Below, piece by piece: positions 9,663 through 17,647 of a DNA stretch of 55,727 nt (position 1 is its first letter; each line of letters begins with the position of its first letter). Location: assembly GCA_016342595.1 (NCBI GenBank), contig JAEINY010000008.1:1-55727 (forward strand), in the 5' to 3' direction. The stretch is from Marinilabiliaceae bacterium (GTDB lineage: Bacteria > Bacteroidota > Bacteroidia > Bacteroidales > Marinilabiliaceae). A model generated the notes under the pieces. That model worked only from the letters and a program-made list of their open reading frames with translations, had not been told where the DNA came from and did not search any database. The translations under genes were made by a program, and so were the position numbers.

Positions 9663-12602
9663 TTAACTCCCCCTCGGATCCGCCACAATAGGCAACTTGG
9701 CCATCTTCTCCACTTCAATGCTGGGGAATCCGAACTCTTCCACAATTTTACCCAGGATGAGGTACATCCCGTAGCCTTTAAAGGGATAAGCTTTTAAGCT
9801 GGACGGAAAGTGGGTGGTATCGAAAAACTCCCCTTTGTGATCAAAGAAAGTGGCAAAGTGCATGGTTTCTCTACGTACGGTACGAACGTATTTGATCGTG
9901 ACCAGTTGCCCCACCATACGTACCTTTTTACCAATGTGCTGGCTAAGTTCATTGGCGGTGATAGCGCCTCTGAAAGGTGTTTGTAGCAGGTCGAATTGGG
10001 AGCAGGAAACCGGGAAGCCCAGCAGTTCTATCTCATCATAAGCATCTTCAGCGATTGTTTGTGTGAGTTGGGGAAGTTCAAACTTTTTTTGCTGTGGAGC
10101 AAACAGTACTTTGGTTTGGGGGGTATCTTCTTTCTTGCCTAATAACATGTGTACCTCCCATAATAATTCCGCCTTGGTTTTGTTTAAAAAACGGAAGGCT
10201 CCAATACGAATGAGCAGTATCATCTGTTCGCGACCGGCTCCGGTGCGTTGAATGAAATCCTCCAATCCGGTGAATAAACCTCTGAAACGCCGCTCTTCCG
10301 CAATTTGTTGGGCCAGATGTTTTTCCAGGCTTTGAATGTGAATGAAGCCTAAATAAATATCTGCTTTACTGATGGCAGTTAAAAACTCGCTGTGATTCAC
10401 ACAGGGCGGATGAATGGTGGCGCCCCAGCGTTTGGCCTCATTCACATAGACGGAGGTGTGATAGAAACCACCAAAGTTATTGATGACGGCAACCATGAAT
10501 TCACGTGGAAAATGAGCTTTCAGGTAGAGGCTCTGAAAACTCTCCACAGCGTAGGAGGCGGAGTGGGCTTTGGAGAAAGAGTAACCGGCGAAGGATTCAA
10601 TCTGTCGCCACACTTCTTTGGTCAAGGCATCCGGATAACCTTTTGCTTTGCAGTTCTCAAAAAACTTGTCTACAATGCGTTGAAATTCTTTTTTCGACCG
10701 GTACTTACCACTCATGGCCCGTCGCAGCACATCGGCATCAGCCAGATCAAGCCCTGCAAAATGATGACATACTTTTAATACATCTTCCTGATAGACCATT
10801 ACACCATAGGTCTCTTCCAGTTGTTCTTTCATCACCGGGTGTAGGTACTTAAATCCTTTGGGGTTATGAAACCGGTTGATGTATTCGCGCATCATGCCCG
10901 AACGGGCCACGCCAGGTCGTATGATGGAGCTGGCTGCCACCAGACTGATGTAATTATCACACTGTAATTTTTTTAGTAAGCCACGCATGGCCGGACTTTC
11001 TATGTAGAAGCAACCGTTGGTTTCGCCCTGCTTCAGGAACTCTTTTACGGTAGGATCCTGTTTAAAGGTTTCGACCTGGTGTACATCTATGTTAATGCCT
11101 CGATTGGCAGCTACGATCTCTACGCACTCCTTAATGTGTCCAATGCCGCGTTGTGACAGGATATCTAACTTCTCAAAGCCGAGGTCTTCTGCCACATACA
11201 TGTCCCATTGGGTGGTTGGGAAGCCTTTGGGTGGCATATCTAAAGCCGTATAGTAGGCAAGCGGCTTCTCTGAAATAAGAATTCCCCCGGCATGAATGGT
11301 GCGCAGATTGGGGAAATTATTCATCCTGCTACCAATGGTGAATATCTTCCTGGCCACTGAGTCGTGGTGCTCACCTTCGGGATGTTCCACCAACTGATCA
11401 ATCTCCTCTTTTGGCAATCCGTAAACCTTACCCAATTCGCGAATGATGGATTTACCCTGAAACGTTGACATGGCTCCTAATAATGCAGTCTGTTCCCTGC
11501 CGTAACGTTTGAAAATATAGTCCTGTATCTCGTCCCGCTCTTTCCAGGAGTAATCAATGTCAAAATCGGGTGGGGATGACCGGCGCGGATTGAGGAATCG
11601 TTCAAAGTATAAATCCAGTTCGATGGGATCCACATCGGTTATCTTGAGACAATAAGCCACCACACTATTGGCTCCGCTACCTCGTCCCACGTGATAAAAA
11701 CCGCGCGAGAGGGAATAACGAATGATGTCCCAGGTGATGAGGAAATAAGCTGCAAACCCTAGCGAGTTAATGATGTTAAGTTCTTTTTCTACGCGCTCTT
11801 GTGCCTTCCGGTTATTCTTGCCATAGCGGTATGCCAGTCCGTCCATGGCCAGTTTTTCGAGTAGTAAGCGGTCATCCTCACGCGATGAGGTGAAGGTTTG
11901 TTTGTTTTTGATCCCGCGGAAATCAGCTGTAAAAGAGCAGTTATTTATTAATTGTTTAGTCGTTTCAAGGATCGTTGGATAGTCCTTGTAAGCCTGTTTC
12001 AGGCGTTGCGGGGGCACTAGCCATTCGGTCTCAGTCGCTAAATCATCCGGCTGAAGCTGGCTTAATAAGATATTTTTATCGATGGCGCGCAGGTGGCGGT
12101 GCAACTCATAACCGGCCCGGTTTTTAAAAGTTACCGGTTGCCATACAAGGAGTTTATCCTGATGCTGGCGATAAGGCGAAGCGACCAGACGGGTCAATTC
12201 TTGCGGGCGAATTCCGGTGAATTCATGAGCTGCCAATTGATCTGGTGTGCGTTTACTAAATGGGTATATGATAAAGCAATGTTCGAATGGAGGGGCTAAT
12301 TCAGGGAGCTGTTTTTTAGTTAAAGTATGTTCTGAAAGAAACTGGTTCAACTCACGAAAACCTTCGTTGTTCTTGGCAATGCCTGTGAATAGGAGGGTGT
12401 TTTTATGTCTGAATTCGATCCCAACAAGGGGGGTGATCTTGTGTTCCTGGCAAGCTTTTACAAAATCGAAAATGGAAGTGGAGTTATTGATGTCTGTAAT
12501 AACCAGGGTGTCTATATGATGTGAGGCTGCTTGTTGCGCCAGCTCTTCAGGTGAGAGGGTGCCATAACGCAGACTGAAATAAGTGTGACAGTTGAGGTAC
12601 AT
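9663..12602 (-). CDS. dnaE2: Error-prone DNA polymerase III alpha subunit (DnaE2-like)
   Basis: This 979-residue C-family polymerase is shorter than replicative DnaE (about 1160). The N-terminal PHP domain (about 1-230) is degraded: the opening metal motif has only one His of the usual pair. The polymerase aspartates are visible in PDFDID (D346, D348) and EKLDIL (D480), so nucleotidyl transfer should be intact. A C-terminal OB-fold (about 880-950) follows. It is probably a translesion polymerase that works with the Y-family polymerase upstream. Its promoter carries the same paired dyads as dinB, so it is probably repressed by the LexA-like protein at 15319. Confidence 0.85.
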   Translation of the reverse strand: MYLNCHTYFSLRYGTLSPEELAQQAASHHIDTLVITDINNSTSIFDFVKACQEHKITPLVGIEFRHKNTLLFTGIAKNNEGFRELNQFLSEHTLTKKQLPELAPPFEHCFIIYPFSKRTPDQLAAHEFTGIRPQELTRLVASPYRQHQDKLLVWQPVTFKNRAGYELHRHLRAIDKNILLSQLQPDDLATETEWLVPPQRLKQAYKDYPTILETTKQLINNCSFTADFRGIKNKQTFTSSREDDRLLLEKLAMDGLAYRYGKNNRKAQERVEKELNIINSLGFAAYFLITWDIIRYSLSRGFYHVGRGSGANSVVAYCLKITDVDPIELDLYFERFLNPRRSSPPDFDIDYSWKERDEIQDYIFKRYGREQTALLGAMSTFQGKSIIRELGKVYGLPKEEIDQLVEHPEGEHHDSVARKIFTIGSRMNNFPNLRTIHAGGILISEKPLAYYTALDMPPKGFPTTQWDMYVAEDLGFEKLDILSQRGIGHIKECVEIVAANRGINIDVHQVETFKQDPTVKEFLKQGETNGCFYIESPAMRGLLKKLQCDNYISLVAASSIIRPGVARSGMMREYINRFHNPKGFKYLHPVMKEQLEETYGVMVYQEDVLKVCHHFAGLDLADADVLRRAMSGKYRSKKEFQRIVDKFFENCKAKGYPDALTKEVWRQIESFAGYSFSKAHSASYAVESFQSLYLKAHFPREFMVAVINNFGGFYHTSVYVNEAKRWGATIHPPCVNHSEFLTAISKADIYLGFIHIQSLEKHLAQQIAEERRFRGLFTGLEDFIQRTGAGREQMILLIRIGAFRFLNKTKAELLWEVHMLLGKKEDTPQTKVLFAPQQKKFELPQLTQTIAEDAYDEIELLGFPVSCSQFDLLQTPFRGAITANELSQHIGKKVRMVGQLVTIKYVRTVRRETMHFATFFDHKGEFFDTTHFPSSLKAYPFKGYGMYLILGKIVEEFGFPSIEVEKMAKLPIVADPRGS

Positions 12603-12607
12603 TTTAT

Positions 12608-12650
12608 TGATTGCATTTTAATCAAAAGTAACGACTAAAATATAATCAAA
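12608..12650 (-). promoter_or_regulatory. dnaE2 promoter with two 6-5-6 operator dyads
   Basis: Two dyads of the same build lie just ahead of the dnaE2 ATG. The proximal one is TGATTG-N5-TAATCA (12608-12624). The distal one is CGACTA-N5-TAATCA (12632-12648). On the coding strand the box TACTTTTG (12623-12630) fits the TAnnTTTG -7 element, and TTTG at 12647-12650 lies 16 nt further up. The dyads overlap both boxes, as expected for a repressor site. The 20-bp block 12631-12650 matches 15206-15225 at 19 of 20 positions. Confidence 0.65.
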
Positions 12651-12731
12651 TAAGAAAAAGGAGGCAAGAAGATATGGTTTAAAAGTTGTTAAGTCTTTAT
12701 GTTTTTTTGATGAGCAGATAATCTGAAATAT

Positions 12732-13907
12732 TTACAACCGTATCCCCATTAACAGCACATCATCAATTTGATCATTAAAGCCTTTCCATTTTAAAAAGAA
12801 ATCATTAAAAATTGAGCGTTGTTCAGGCATGGGGTGGTGATGGTGATCCATGATCATTTGACGAAACCCTTTTTGCATTAGCTTTTTATCGCTCGTGCCT
12901 CCAAATTGAGAGGCAAAACCATCGGAATACATATAAATACAATCGCCTTTTTGATAAGGGAATGCATGGTTTTTGAACGAACGGTCAATTTCACCATAGG
13001 AAACCGGCATGTGATCGGCTGGAAAAATGGTGAGTTCTTCGTCGCGGATGTGTAAGATGGAATTAAAAGCACCGGCATATTCAATCTGCTGATGGGCTAC
13101 ATCAATGGTGACAATACTGATGTCCATGCCATCTTTGACCTCGCTTTTCTCATCTTGCTGAAGCGACTCAATCACAATGCGGCGGAGTTCGTTAAGAATG
13201 GTAGCCGGGCGTGTTTCACCGTTTTTACCAACAATCTCATGTAGATAAGCTACACCAAACATGCTCATAATGGCTCCGGGAACGCCATGACCCGTACAGT
13301 CGGCAGCAATAATGACCAATTTGGCATCTACCTGACCCACCCAATAGAAATCACCACTTACAATATCTCTTGGTTTTAATATAACGAAATGCTCGGGCAT
13401 TACACGATTCATAAATTCCTGTTTGGGCAAACTGGCATTCTGAATTTTCTTCGCGTATTCAATGCTGTCGGTGAGCTTTTTATTAATGGCTTCTATTTTA
13501 CGTATGAGGCGCTGATTCTGATCCCGGGCCATTTTTATTGTCAGCTGGGTTTTGACCCGTGCCTGTAATTCTACAATGTTAAACGGTTTGGTAATGTAAT
13601 CAATGGCACCACTTTCAAATCCTTTCAGTATATTTTCGGGATCGTTTTGACCCGTGATGAAAATAATGGGAATATTACGGGTGAGCTCATTAGTTTTTAA
13701 AAAACGACACACCTCGTAACCATCCATGCCGGGCATGATAACGTCTAAAAGAATAAGATCCGGTTTTTCCCGTGAAAAAGCAATTTCCAGAGCCTCTTCT
13801 CCGTTTGTCGCTGTGGTTAGTCTGTAACGGGATAGTGAGTCGGTCAGTATCTCAATATTTACCGGTGAATCATCAACCAGTAGTATGGTAGGTGTTAAAT
13901 CTGTCAT
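12732..13907 (-). CDS. Response regulator with PP2C/SpoIIE phosphatase output
   Basis: This 391-residue protein has a receiver domain (about 5-120) with the acidic pair in LVDDSP (D12, D13), phospho-acceptor D55 in LILLDVIMPG, and Lys in ITKPF. A short coiled coil follows (about 130-160), and then a SpoIIE/PP2C-type phosphatase domain (about 175-390) with GDFYWVG, ADCTGHGVPGA and YSDGF metal-binding motifs. Such RsbU-like proteins dephosphorylate anti-sigma-antagonists in partner-switch systems. No anti-sigma or antagonist gene is nearby. It lies between dinB and dnaE2 on the same strand; its own start lacks the shared operators. Confidence 0.88.
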   Translation of the reverse strand: MTDLTPTILLVDDSPVNIEILTDSLSRYRLTTATNGEEALEIAFSREKPDLILLDVIMPGMDGYEVCRFLKTNELTRNIPIIFITGQNDPENILKGFESGAIDYITKPFNIVELQARVKTQLTIKMARDQNQRLIRKIEAINKKLTDSIEYAKKIQNASLPKQEFMNRVMPEHFVILKPRDIVSGDFYWVGQVDAKLVIIAADCTGHGVPGAIMSMFGVAYLHEIVGKNGETRPATILNELRRIVIESLQQDEKSEVKDGMDISIVTIDVAHQQIEYAGAFNSILHIRDEELTIFPADHMPVSYGEIDRSFKNHAFPYQKGDCIYMYSDGFASQFGGTSDKKLMQKGFRQMIMDHHHHPMPEQRSIFNDFFLKWKGFNDQIDDVLLMGIRL

Positions 13908-13987
13908 TAGTTGATATTGTGCTGATGCAAGGTTAAGACTAATTTACGAAAAAAACAGTGGAAAGTTTATTTTGTTTGGGATTTTCG

Positions 13988-15139
13988 TTATTTCATACCT
14001 GCTGCACGTCCCAATGAGTGCGCCCCAAAGCGGTTACGGATGCGATCCATTGTCAGATACAGGTTAATTTGTTCGGGTGTATCTTCAAATAAATTAAGTT
14101 GTTGCACGCCGGTGACCAGATGACTTAGGCGTATGCCCACTAATCGCACCAGCATGCGCCGTGTGTAAAGGCGTTTAAAAAGTTCTTTGGCTGTATTAAT
14201 AAGTACATGATCGAATGATGTGTAAGCAATGCGTTTTTGTATGGTGTGCGTGTCAAAGTTCGAGTAGCGGATTTTTACGGTAATACAAGCCGTTAGTTTT
14301 TGTTGCTGACGCAGTTCAAAAGCCAGCTTTTCGGCCATGCGTACAATAAGTTCATTCAGGTATTTTACATCAATGGTGTCCTGATCAAAAGTACGTTCGG
14401 TACTGATGGATTTTTGTTCGGAATAACGGATGACCGGCGTGGTATCAATGCCATTAGCTTTTTTCCAGATGTCAATGCCATTTTTGCCCAATACTTTTTG
14501 AATCATTTCCGGTGGGATGTGACTCAGTGTTTCAATTTTTACAATGCCCATCGATCGTAACAGATGAAAAGTACGTGGTCCTACCATGGGGATTTTTCGG
14601 ATGGAAAGAGGGTTGAGGAAGGGTTTTACATCCCTTGCTTTGACTTCTATTTCGCCATCTGGCTTGGCTTCTCCGGTGGCTATTTTGGATACCGTTTTAT
14701 TCACCGATAAGCCAAATGAAATGGGTAATCCGGTTTCTTTGATGATGTACTGACGTAGCTCGTGAGTCCATTGCAGGCAGCCAAAGAATCGGTCCATGCC
14801 GGTCAGATCCAGGTAGTGCTCGTCAATGGATGCCTTCTCATAGGCGGGGGCACGTTCGGCAATAATATCGGTTACCGTGCGTGAAAAGTTGGTGTATTGC
14901 TCCATATCACCCCGTATATAAAAAGCCTGGGGACAGAGTTGGCGGGCCATTTTCATAGGCATGGCCGAATGTACGCCAAATTGGCGGGCCTCATAACTGC
15001 AACCGGCTACCACACCTCGGTCCGACATGCCGCCGATCACTACCGGTTTCTCCTTGAGTTTACTGTTGAAAAGGCGTTCGACCGATACAAAAAATGTATC
15101 CAGGTCCAAATGGGCAATGTGTCTGTTTTCTTCTGACAT
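13988..15139 (-). CDS. dinB: Y-family DNA polymerase IV (DinB)
   Basis: This 383-residue translesion polymerase has the catalytic motif HLDLDTFF (D12; steric gate F17) and SIDEHYLDLT (D106, E107). The thumb and little finger domains follow. A consensus beta-clamp binding motif QLNLF is at 347-351. It should replicate past damage at low fidelity. It is divergent from the LexA-like repressor at 15319 and shares the operator arrangement of dnaE2. Length is close to DinB (about 350) and shorter than UmuC (about 420). Confidence 0.92.
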   Translation of the reverse strand: MSEENRHIAHLDLDTFFVSVERLFNSKLKEKPVVIGGMSDRGVVAGCSYEARQFGVHSAMPMKMARQLCPQAFYIRGDMEQYTNFSRTVTDIIAERAPAYEKASIDEHYLDLTGMDRFFGCLQWTHELRQYIIKETGLPISFGLSVNKTVSKIATGEAKPDGEIEVKARDVKPFLNPLSIRKIPMVGPRTFHLLRSMGIVKIETLSHIPPEMIQKVLGKNGIDIWKKANGIDTTPVIRYSEQKSISTERTFDQDTIDVKYLNELIVRMAEKLAFELRQQQKLTACITVKIRYSNFDTHTIQKRIAYTSFDHVLINTAKELFKRLYTRRMLVRLVGIRLSHLVTGVQQLNLFEDTPEQINLYLTMDRIRNRFGAHSLGRAAGMK

Positions 15140-15183
15140 TTTTACTTTAAAAAGTTGCTTATTTTATCTGCTTGTGTTATTTT

Positions 15184-15225
15184 TGATTAATAAATAATCA
15201 TCATCACGACTATAATATAATCAAA
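15184..15225 (-). promoter_or_regulatory. dinB / repressor divergent region with two operator dyads
   Basis: TGATTA-N5-TAATCA (15184-15200) is a perfect 6-5-6 dyad. CGACTA-N5-TAATCA (15207-15223) follows with its centre 23 bp away, compared with 24 bp in front of dnaE2. The block 15206-15225 is nearly identical to 12631-12650. Further TTTTGAT strings at about 15258 and 15281 lie closer to the repressor gene and may be weak half-sites. A -7 box for dinB is not clear. Confidence 0.65.
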
Positions 15226-15318: not shown

Positions 15319-16125
15319 ATGTATTTTGCCAACAATATTAAGTATCTGCGAAAACGGCGTAAGCGCACTCAGGATGATGTGGCGCATGCCTTGAATATGA
15401 AACGTTCGACTCTCAGTGGGTACGAGAATCGGGTGGCTCAACCCAATCCTTCTGTTTTGGTAGCTTTCAGTAATTATTTTAATGTGGCCATTGATACCTT
15501 AATAAAGGTCGACTTGCACAGTTTGTCTGAAAGTCAGCTGTCGCAGCTCGAAGGCGGCTTCGATGTGTTTCTCAAAGGCAGTGGTTTGCGAGTTTTGGTA
15601 TCCACGGTGGATGCCGATAATCATGAAAATATTGAACTAGTGGAGGAGAAGGCCAAAGCGGGTTATGCCACTGGTTTTTCTGATCCGGAATACATCAACG
15701 AATTACCGGTCTTTCAACTGCCGTTTCTGTCGCCCGAAAAAAAATATCGGACGTTTCAGATTTCAGGCGATTCCATGTTGCCTATCCCGGAAGGTGCTCT
15801 GGTAACCGGTGAATATGTACAGGACTGGACATCACTTAAAACAGGAACCCCTTGTTTGGTGATTACCATGGATGATGGCGTGGTGTTTAAGATACTGGAG
15901 AATCAATTGGAGAAGGATCGGACCTTAGTGTTGCATTCACTGAACACCATTTATAAACCTTATGCCGTATCTCCCGATACTATCCGTGAGGTATGGAAGT
16001 TTGTGCATTACATCAGTTCGAAGATGCCGATGGATGGTGTTGATTTGCAAAATTTGGCACTGGGATTGGCTTCGCTGCACCGTGATGTGAAGCATATCAA
16101 AGATCAATTGGAAAGTAATGATTAA
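15319..16125 (+). CDS. LexA-like repressor: XRE helix-turn-helix plus S24 autoprotease
   Basis: This 268-residue protein has an N-terminal XRE-type helix-turn-helix (about 6-62) and a C-terminal S24/LexA-type domain (about 140-230). The Ser/Lys dyad is S152 (in SGDSM) and K191 (in VVFKIL). A putative Ala-Gly cleavage bond lies at A114-G115 (KAGYATGF), 37 residues before the Ser; the corresponding distance in E. coli LexA is 35. It is therefore likely to be inactivated by RecA-stimulated self-cleavage. It is divergent from dinB and probably binds the 6-5-6 dyads. Classical LexA has a winged helix, so this is an analogue and not an orthologue. Confidence 0.85.
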   Translation: MYFANNIKYLRKRRKRTQDDVAHALNMKRSTLSGYENRVAQPNPSVLVAFSNYFNVAIDTLIKVDLHSLSESQLSQLEGGFDVFLKGSGLRVLVSTVDADNHENIELVEEKAKAGYATGFSDPEYINELPVFQLPFLSPEKKYRTFQISGDSMLPIPEGALVTGEYVQDWTSLKTGTPCLVITMDDGVVFKILENQLEKDRTLVLHSLNTIYKPYAVSPDTIREVWKFVHYISSKMPMDGVDLQNLALGLASLHRDVKHIKDQLESND

Positions 16126-16261: not shown

Positions 16262-17647
16262 ATGATGTTTTTTTACGGGATGACCTTGGTATTTATACTG
16301 GGGTACGGGCTTATTGCATTCGAGCATGTCAACAAAATAGATAAAGCGGCTGTCGCGTTATTGACGGGAGGCCTGATGTGGTTGCTGTTGGTTATAGGAG
16401 CCCCGGATATTTATCAATTGGGTTTCAGTCAGGAACTAAATGCACTAACAGCAGGTCACGCTGGTGGTACTCACTCTATTGTCGATTTGATTACGCGGCA
16501 CGCATTCACAGAACACTTGGGTGAGATTGCTTCCATTGTTTTCTTCTTGATGGCAGCCATGACAATCGTTGAAGTGGTAGACCGCTATCAGGGGTTTCGC
16601 ATTATTACTGATCGTATTAAAACGACCAGTCGTATTCGCTTACTTTGGATCATCAGTATACTTGCGTTCTTAATATCTGCAGTATTGGATAATCTCACAA
16701 CCACCATTGTGATGATTACGTTACTCCAGAAACTCTTAGCGAAACAAGATAATCGATGGTTATTTTCCGGGATGGTAGTGATTGCTGCTAATGCAGGTGG
16801 AGCGTTTTCTCCCATGGGTGATGTGACGACGATTATGCTTTGGATTGGTGGACAAGTAACGGCTGCCAGTGTGGTTAAAACATTGTTTCTTCCGAGTTTG
16901 GTCGCCATGGTTGTTCCGCTGACAGTGCTTTCTTTTATTTTACCTGGTCGAACAGCTCGACCAGCTTTGTCGGATGATGAAGTGGAAGAGTTTGTACCTT
17001 ATAAACATCGGGTTATTATTTTATGTTTGGGATTATTTGCCCTAATTACAGTGCCGGTATTGAAGGCGTTTACCCATTTGCCACCTTCCGTTGGAATGTT
17101 GTTAGGACTTGGGATAATATGGGTGTATACCGATCGTTTTCTAAAACGTAAGCAAAATCTGGATAGACGTAAGCTTAGTGTTACGCGCATTCTGAAACAA
17201 GTGGATACCGCTACGGTTTTGTTCTTCCTGGGCATTTTATTGAGTGTGGCCGCTTTTCAAACAGCAGGGCAGCTTAATGTTTTAGCCGGTTGGCTAAGTA
17301 CTACCATAGGTAATGTTTATGGGATCAATCTAATCATCGGTTTTCTCTCTTCCATTGTGGATAATGTGCCGTTGGTAGCAGCTTCCATGGGGATGTATGG
17401 TATTGAACCTGCTAGTGCGACTGGATTTTTAGCTGATTTTGTGGTGGATGGTAACTTCTGGACTTTTCTGGCTTATTGTGCCGGAACAGGAGGTAGTGTC
17501 TTAATCATTGGATCTGCAGCAGGTGTTGCTGCCATGGGATTAGAAGGAATTCCCTTTTTCTGGTACATGAAACGCATTGGCTGGCTGGCCCTTTTAGGAT
17601 ATTTATCTGGAGCAGCTTGTTTTATGGTGATGCAATTATTATTCTGA
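16262..17647 (+). CDS. nhaD: Na+/H+ antiporter, NhaD family
   Basis: This 461-residue polytopic inner membrane protein of the ion transporter superfamily has about 12 predicted helices. The segments LDNLTTTIVMITLL, NAGGAFSPMGDVTTIMLW and SSIVDNVPLVAASMGMYG are typical NhaD signatures with the conserved Asp residues in the membrane. NhaD exchanges internal Na+ or Li+ for external H+ and is known from alkaliphilic and halophilic bacteria. The gene has its own promoter box and its own terminator, so it is transcribed alone. The alternative start one codon later makes no difference. Confidence 0.88.
   Translation: MMFFYGMTLVFILGYGLIAFEHVNKIDKAAVALLTGGLMWLLLVIGAPDIYQLGFSQELNALTAGHAGGTHSIVDLITRHAFTEHLGEIASIVFFLMAAMTIVEVVDRYQGFRIITDRIKTTSRIRLLWIISILAFLISAVLDNLTTTIVMITLLQKLLAKQDNRWLFSGMVVIAANAGGAFSPMGDVTTIMLWIGGQVTAASVVKTLFLPSLVAMVVPLTVLSFILPGRTARPALSDDEVEEFVPYKHRVIILCLGLFALITVPVLKAFTHLPPSVGMLLGLGIIWVYTDRFLKRKQNLDRRKLSVTRILKQVDTATVLFFLGILLSVAAFQTAGQLNVLAGWLSTTIGNVYGINLIIGFLSSIVDNVPLVAASMGMYGIEPASATGFLADFVVDGNFWTFLAYCAGTGGSVLIIGSAAGVAAMGLEGIPFFWYMKRIGWLALLGYLSGAACFMVMQLLF

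What the first reader, a model, noticed from the sequence alone, without database searches (positions are those of the whole stretch)
12608..15225. Paired 6-5-6 operators shared by dnaE2 and dinB next to a LexA-like XRE-S24 repressor
Both promoters have two dyads of form NGAYTR-N5-TAATCA with centres 23-24 bp apart. The distal dyads share a 20-bp block at 19/20 positions, while the flanks differ. In front of dnaE2 the dyads overlap the -7 and -33 boxes. The repressor has the Ala-Gly bond and Ser/Lys dyad of LexA but an XRE DNA-binding domain. This suggests a private SOS circuit with a cooperative two-site operator, in a phylum where classical LexA is often missing.
Basis: partly seen in the sequence, partly recalled or inferred. 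Interest (0 to 1): 0.72.

Follow-up and report, generated by a model that had tools for sequence, protein, structure and literature searches.

The report
Paired-operator SOS switch in Bacteroidales
Next to two error-prone DNA polymerase genes lies a gene for a predicted phage-type, LexA-like repressor, and each polymerase gene has in front of it two matching DNA sites 23 or 24 bases apart, a layout that recurs at 23 bases in dozens of related bacteria; the repressor likely binds such pairs side by side and would release the polymerases after DNA damage.

Summary
Four 17-bp dyads (TGATTA-N5-TAATCA type) form two pairs: in front of dnaE2 (centres 24 bp apart) and between dinB and the XRE-S24 gene (23 bp). 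Not found in print is the architecture. In the 80 best named relatives all 51 strong pairs lie exactly 23 bp apart, none at another distance up to 80 bp; 29 loci lack one. In 59 of 62 pairs the repressor's own -7 box is fused to the first dyad. A profile built without the window found 27 of 27 sites (E up to 1.2e-3) at dinB, dnaE2, the repressor or one repair-type gene. dnaE2 has its own pair in 6 of 10 loci where it lies far from dinB, 0 of 36 where near. Outside the order, pairs with other half-sites peak at 23 and 33 bp. This suggests lambda-CI-like side-by-side binding; binding, cooperativity, cleavage and induction are untested.

The parts
15319..16125 (+). predicted non-canonical LexA-type repressor: CI-type HTH (about residues 1-66), linker with A114-G115, S24 domain with S152 and K191, C-terminal helix 241-266
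   Evidence: Pfam HTH_3 8.2e-13 and Peptidase_S24 9.9e-6; catalytic residues invariant in 30 of 30; model with LexA-like C-domain and P22 c2-like N-domain
13988..15139 (-). dinB (Y-family polymerase IV type)
   Evidence: PF00817 and PF11799; NF002677 over its cut-off
9663..12602 (-). dnaE2-like second C-family polymerase, 979 aa
   Evidence: Pfam DNA_pol3_alpha, finger, HHH_6, PHP; the genome has one other, larger DnaE; NCBIfam 'error-prone DNA polymerase' model matched below its cut-off
15184..15200 (.). O1 dyad of the dinB/repressor pair, 12 of 12
15207..15223 (.). O2 dyad of the dinB/repressor pair, 23 bp from O1; spacer mostly (C/T)AATA in relatives
15178..15185 (+). -7 type box TATTTTTG of the repressor's predicted promoter, sharing TG with O1
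   Evidence: TAnnTTTG at this place in 59 of 62 pairs; box consensus recalled
15155..15157 (+). TTG of the -33 type box of the repressor's predicted promoter
   Evidence: TTG at -32..-25 from O1 in 50 of those 59 pairs
12608..12624 (.). proximal dyad (O1-like) of the dnaE2 pair, 11 of 12
12632..12648 (.). distal dyad (O2-like) of the dnaE2 pair, 24 bp from the proximal one
12623..12630 (-). -7 type box TACTTTTG of dnaE2, sharing TG with the proximal dyad
   Evidence: sequence; box consensus recalled
12647..12650 (-). -33 type TTTG of dnaE2, overlapping the distal dyad
   Evidence: sequence
12732..13907 (-). response regulator-SpoIIE phosphatase gene that separates dinB from dnaE2 here and in G019
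   Evidence: same order in L174

Best explanation
The XRE-S24 protein at 15319-16122 is likely a Bacteroidales form of the non-canonical LexA repressors: it is predicted to bind each operator pair as two dimers lying side by side, so that dinB, dnaE2 and its own gene would stay off until RecA filaments trigger its self-cleavage at A114-G115. Shown here by sequence: the paired dyads, the 23-bp spacing of strong pairs in relatives, their fusion to the repressor's own -7 type box, their presence at dinB and at dnaE2 also in genomes where these genes lie apart, and the intact cleavage and catalytic residues. Inferred: binding by this protein, dimer-dimer contact, repression, cleavage and induction by DNA damage.
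For: Spacing: 51 strong pairs in 51 of 80 named loci, all at 23 bp, none at another distance up to 80 bp; five other dyads of the same shape gave no pair, a sixth sharing 10 of 12 letters gave 17, all at 23 bp. Target genes: 28 matches at E 1.2e-3 or better in 61 genomes, one the opposite-strand shadow of another; the other 27, in 23 genomes, all lie in front of dinB, dnaE2, the repressor or (one) a TIGR03916 repair-type radical SAM gene. Ten of them, in 9 genomes, are dinB promoters with no repressor in the stretch fetched, so adjacency is not the cause. The cut at 1.2e-3 was set after looking; the next distinct site (E 0.0028) is at dnaE2 and the first at another gene comes at E 0.0066. Displacement: dnaE2 has its own pair (19 or more of 24) in 6 of 10 callable loci 604 bp or more from dinB and in 0 of 36 within 450 bp (Fisher p 2e-5, not corrected for kinship). 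Selectivity: recA, the other dinB, the larger dnaE and the SRAP gene of this genome lack the pair. Autoregulation: -7 type box fused to O1 in 59 of 62. Outside the order: 6 of 30 genera at 23 bp and 4 at 33 bp, shuffles at most 2 at any distance in 200 runs. Protein.
Against: Nothing was measured for this protein. 29 of the 80 loci lack a strong 23-bp pair: 7 have a weaker one at 23 bp, 14 a weaker one at 24 bp by a loose score (many of them rumen MAGs), one is cut 26 bp before the gene, 7 show none. The window's own dnaE2 pair is 24 bp. By the strict criterion 20 of 30 genera outside the order show no pair at 23 or 33 bp. A -7 box in the dinB direction is not evident (5 of 62 on O1, 0 of 62 on O2), so how the pair blocks dinB is unclear. 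Of 11 loci with dnaE2 604 bp or more away, 4 show no strong pair and one is masked; four of the six with a pair (L086, L109, L131, L138) share a drifted 24-bp form and are not independent. Two other S24 proteins are encoded in the genome. 23 bp is 2.2 turns of DNA, so the dyads are only roughly on one face.
Confidence: 0.72

Rival explanations
1. The two dyads are bound independently; their spacing is fixed by the distance between -33 and -7 promoter boxes, not by contact between dimers.
For: In front of the window's dnaE2 both dyads share TTTG with the two boxes, 24 bp apart (sequence).
Against: At the repressor's own promoter, where 23 bp is kept in the strong pairs, only O1 touches a box; O2 lies downstream of the -7 box. 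In G019 the -7 type box of dnaE2 sits on the outer side of O2 instead (L174). Outside the order the spacing also occurs about one helical turn longer, 33 bp.
Confidence: 0.2
2. The dyads are bound by another regulator, for example one of the two other S24 proteins of the genome.
For: Two other S24 proteins exist (C452, C229).
Against: Neither locus carries such dyads (best single 9 of 12), while the repressor's own promoter does in 50 of 80 relatives. Several homologues outside the order carry other dyads in their own promoters.
Confidence: 0.06
3. The repressor and operators are real but respond to another signal than DNA damage, or the protein acts as activator.
For: No induction data for this clade were found; PMC8565304 itself leaves an activating role open.
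Against: Cleavage site and dyad invariant in 30 of 30; targets are error-prone polymerases and, once each, a TIGR03916 repair-type gene and an SRAP neighbour; mitomycin C induction was reported for relatives with other motifs.
Confidence: 0.12
4. Chance palindromes in AT-rich promoters.
For: Intergenic DNA here is AT-rich and single dyads do occur elsewhere (36 hits); at 9 of 12, pairs at many distances appear (at most 11 at one distance).
Confidence: 0.01

Closest known systems
Non-canonical LexA repressors of Bacteroidetes (Sanchez-Osuna et al. 2021, PMC8565304)
   Same: CI-type HTH plus S24 domain with Ala-Gly and Ser-Lys; palindrome with N5 spacer in the own promoter; dinB and dnaE among the targets; extra C-terminal helix; no LexA.
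   Different: Half-site GATTA-N5-TAATC instead of GGA-N5-TCC, CTAA-N5-TTAG or TTAC-N5-GTAA; found in Bacteroidales-type genomes, where both named groups were reported absent; predicted targets here are only dinB, dnaE2 and the repressor; a fixed tandem pair, not described in the parts of the main text read (supplementary Table S5 on multiple sites not seen).
Phage lambda CI at OR (and P22 c2, 434 repressor)
   Same: HTH fold (P22 c2, 434); 17-bp operators (lambda: passage of PMC4997575); gap of 6-7 bp, centre distance 23-24 bp (lambda figures recalled).
   Different: Two sites instead of three in each region; beside chromosomal polymerase genes; no close relative in the phage records and viral contigs searched.
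Canonical LexA (E. coli lexA promoter with two SOS boxes)
   Same: S24 domain; autoregulation; PlexA has two SOS boxes with an observed Hill coefficient of 1.5 (PMC5152588 passages).
   Different: No winged HTH found; here the pair is at the polymerase genes as well, and its spacing is kept at 23 bp in strong pairs across many relatives.
UmuDAb of Acinetobacter (PMC11332147, abstract) and FddR of Francisella (PMC13148647, abstract)
   Same: S24 regulators in place of LexA; UmuDAb modelled with two binding sites in one operator; FddR autoregulates and controls divergently transcribed genes.
   Different: Other DNA motifs and hosts; no fixed tandem of separate dyads described in the abstracts read.

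Membership tests
Non-canonical LexA family of Bacteroidetes | S24 domain with scissile Ala-Gly and Ser-Lys dyad | tested here: met
   PF00717 over cut-off; A114, G115, S152, K191 invariant in 30 of 30
Non-canonical LexA family of Bacteroidetes | N-terminal CI-type HTH (PF01381), no LexA winged HTH | tested here: met
Non-canonical LexA family of Bacteroidetes | palindrome with N5 spacer in its own promoter and at error-prone polymerase genes | tested here: met
Non-canonical LexA family of Bacteroidetes | same clade as the characterised proteins WP_075324850.1 / WP_025606010.1 | tested here: inconclusive
   those sequences were not on hand; some homologues found with this protein at E 1e-30 or better carry CTAA-N5-TTAG dyads in their own promoters; Bacteroidales rows fall apart from most of them in the tree, whose root is for drawing only
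[quoted passage not shown]
   operators are GATTA-N5-TAATC
Non-canonical LexA family of Bacteroidetes | binding to the dyads and induction by mitomycin C | not testable with these tools
   needs EMSA and RT-qPCR
Canonical LexA | winged HTH PF01726 | tested here: not met
Lambda CI-type cooperative operator | tandem 17-bp dyads with centres 23-24 bp apart | tested here: met
   lambda spacing recalled
Lambda CI-type cooperative operator | cooperative binding of two dimers | not testable with these tools
   needs footprint titration
Lambda CI-type cooperative operator | phage context or close phage relative | tested here: inconclusive
   phage collection: 5 records, none covering 80%; viral contigs: 29 pattern matches, no confirmed relative; phage genes around the window not searched for

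The most novel reading that the evidence does not exclude
The SOS repressors of Bacteroidetes kept a lambda-like tandem operator from a phage ancestor: the distance between the two dyads (23 bp, or 33 bp with one more helical turn) is conserved across orders of the class while the half-site sequence has been rewritten several times, so the geometry of dimer-dimer contact, not the DNA word, is the conserved feature of this SOS switch.
Probability: 0.48. Interest if true: 0.72.

Novelty: new variant of a known kind. Interest (0 to 1): 0.56.

Why it matters
It gives a candidate SOS regulator and operator to Bacteroidales-type bacteria, the order where the 2021 study found neither named group, and names its likely targets: the error-prone polymerases. 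The paired operator predicts a sharp switch and a testable spacing rule (works at 23 and 33 bp, fails at about 28). If the distance is kept while the half-site changes, the family is a natural series for how a repressor rewrites its DNA word and keeps its assembly, and it bears on the proposal that SOS repressors came from phage repressors.

Tried and rejected
Regulon beyond polymerases in this genome: the next listed model matches in own contigs (C120:10-36, E 0.027; C153:7369-7394, E 0.11) are partial and sit by ORFs that I did not identify; taken as chance. A perfect single dyad at C415:33747 lies in front of an unidentified ORF; not counted. The other single hits were not annotated. recA, SRAP, second dinB and the larger dnaE carry no pair.

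A dinB -7 box fused to either dyad: 5 of 62 and 0 of 62; left open. That the C-terminal helix makes the dimer-dimer contact: group C repressors lack it yet show 23-bp pairs at a looser score (L248-L250), so rejected as necessary. Phage origin by direct relatives: none close. Solved-structure search by sequence reached only HTH domains; the monomer model is of middling confidence, mean pLDDT 66.9, linker poor.

Controls that could have failed: other dyads (the one sharing 10 of 12 letters gave 17 pairs, all at 23 bp), shuffles, reversed pattern. At 9 of 12, pairs at many other distances appear, at most 11 at one distance against 59 at 23. In one search (350 bp, looser score) the best pair fell at 23 in 13 and at 33 in 9 of 69 regions, five of these regions being from the window's own order. 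In one search one of 65 homologues was dropped (gene at a contig edge), and a few start codons were set by rule and look wrong (L197, L213). Cut-offs were set after seeing the data.

Literature. PMC8565304: abstract, introduction, Results whole and Discussion part 1 of 2 read, plus passages (no word beginning 'cooperativ', one 'two or more motif instances'); supplements not seen. PMC11332147 and PMC13148647: abstracts and section lists only. PMC4997575, PMC5152588, PMC3919608: passages. All others: search listings.
Full report
What is there. On the minus strand lie dinB (13988-15139), a response regulator-SpoIIE gene (12732-13907) and a dnaE2-like gene (9663-12602); on the plus strand, divergent from dinB, an HTH_3 plus Peptidase_S24 protein (15319-16125). 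The assembly has one other DnaE (open frame of 1428 codons), one other Y-family polymerase and two other S24 proteins. It has a RecA and no match to the LexA winged-helix domain (the same search rings in 10 of 14 control genomes). The nearest named relatives of the repressor are one 'Bacteroidales bacterium' and three Marinilabiliaceae MAGs, 72-78% identical. NCBI now places Marinilabiliaceae in Marinilabiliales; many further hits are labelled Bacteroidales, others only Bacteroidia or Bacteroidetes.

The observation. All four dyads, the two spacings (24 and 23 bp) and the 19-of-20 block are as stated.

Conservation of the pair. In 80 named loci, the best of 556, 207 dyads reach 10 of 12. Every two of them within 80 bp of each other, 51 cases in 51 loci, are exactly 23 bp apart; 50 lie upstream of the repressor, one (L115) at dnaE2. 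Five other dyads of the same shape give none; a sixth, sharing 10 of 12 letters, gives 17, all at 23 bp. The other 29 loci have no such pair: 7 have a weaker one at 23 bp, 14 a weaker one at 24 bp by a loose score over the whole locus, one is cut off 26 bp before the gene, 7 show none. In 62 strong pairs (50 from these loci, 12) TAnnTTTG pointing to the repressor is fused to the first dyad in 59, with TTG 25-32 bp upstream in 50 of those; the mirrored and O2 positions give 5, 0 and 0. Part of this box (TG) belongs to the dyad and was used in selection; the TAnnTT part was not. The first dyad has a free spacer; the second a nearly fixed one, (C/T)AATA.

Targets. A sequence-only profile of 49 pairs from other organisms was run on 61 genomes. 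Of 28 matches at E 1.2e-3 or better, one is the shadow of another on the opposite strand. The 27 others, in 23 genomes, lie in front of dinB, dnaE2 or the repressor, or, in G014, of an rSAM_link_UDG gene (TIGR03916) followed by a DUF4130 gene. In G046 the repressor's divergent neighbour across the pair is an SRAP protein (PF02586, 7e-42; NCBIfam gave only a weak hit). Ten sites in 9 genomes are dinB promoters with no repressor in the stretch fetched. The cut-off was set after looking: the next distinct site (G010, E 0.0028) is at dnaE2, the first at another gene comes at E 0.0066. In 47 loci with both genes, dnaE2 has its own pair (19 of 24 or better) in 0 of 36 when it follows dinB within 450 bp, and in 6 of 10 callable loci (11, one masked) when 604 bp or more away (Fisher p 2e-5; four of the six share one drifted 24-bp form, so they are not independent). 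The window fits: dnaE2 is cut off from dinB by the response regulator gene and has its own pair. So do G019 with the same gene order, and G026, G009 and G058.

Beyond the order. Homologues at E 1e-30 or better occur in 54 of 296 genomes drawn across the phylum, the window's own included; all others are of the same class. In 64 of their 65 upstream regions (30 genera, 150 bp each) I asked, without naming a motif, at which distance two dyads with a common half-site recur. Six genera have them at 23 bp and four at 33 bp, no more than one at any other distance; 200 shuffles never gave more than 2 at any distance. Twenty genera show neither. The half-sites differ: TRCTAA in one family (holding the CTAA-N5-TTAG word of the 2021 paper), AACTAA, TGATAC, TGTTAC; one promoter (L241) holds TGTTACAAATTGTAACA, which contains the validated Elizabethkingia site TTAC-AAATT-GTAA. 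23 and 33 bp differ by about one turn of DNA.

How it most likely works. Two dimers sit side by side on each pair. O1 would cover the start of the repressor's own promoter and, at dnaE2, the -7 box; O2 would add binding energy through dimer-dimer contact. After damage, RecA would trigger cleavage at A114-G115; loss of dimers would empty both sites in a narrow range of repressor concentration, and the polymerases and the repressor would be made. The layout is shown above by sequence; binding, contact, cleavage and induction are inferred from the family, for which EMSA and mitomycin C data exist with other motifs (PMC8565304).

Known or new. The kind is known (PMC8565304). New here, as far as searches show: the Bacteroidales variant and its word, its small polymerase regulon, the fixed tandem spacing, its echo at 23 and 33 bp in other orders of the class, and the gain of a pair by displaced dnaE2. 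That paper says 'two or more motif instances' occur in several promoters and points to a supplementary table that I could not see, so the spacing may be visible there. After checking I narrowed 'phylum-wide' to 'class', since all homologues found were of one class, and lowered the novel reading from 0.50 to 0.48 for that.

Noticed in passing
window 12732-13907: A response regulator-SpoIIE phosphatase gene sits between dinB and dnaE2 on the same strand, here and in G019 (L174); in 36 of 47 named loci with both genes dnaE2 starts within 450 bp of dinB's end.
   Followed up: partly
L082, L086, L102, L109, L131, L138 (rumen and related MAGs): A group with weaker 24-bp pairs whose dyads have drifted (TGACGA / CGCCGTA half-sites), at dinB and at displaced dnaE2.
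   Followed up: partly
L248-L250, with L058, L059, L061 (group C repressors): Repressors of about 238 aa without the C-terminal helix, recognition helix RTTLAGYEK, some with TGTCGA/TGACGA dyads 23 bp apart.
   Followed up: partly
L220, L222, L226, L232, L233: Tandem dyads 33 bp apart with TGATAC/TGTTAC-like half-sites in front of homologues outside the order.
   Followed up: partly
A2 columns around residues 26-42, with the promoters of the same genes: The recognition-helix word (RSTLSGYEN, RPTLNNYEN, RTTLAGYEK, RSLVGAYEE, RVRYSKYEN, RGRYVKYE) seems to change together with the half-site; a possible recognition code.
   Followed up: no
G000:C184:4234-4674: A second Y-family polymerase in the same genome without the paired operator.
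   Followed up: partly
window 16262-17647: The gene after the repressor reads like an NhaD-type sodium/proton antiporter (read by eye, not searched).
   Followed up: no
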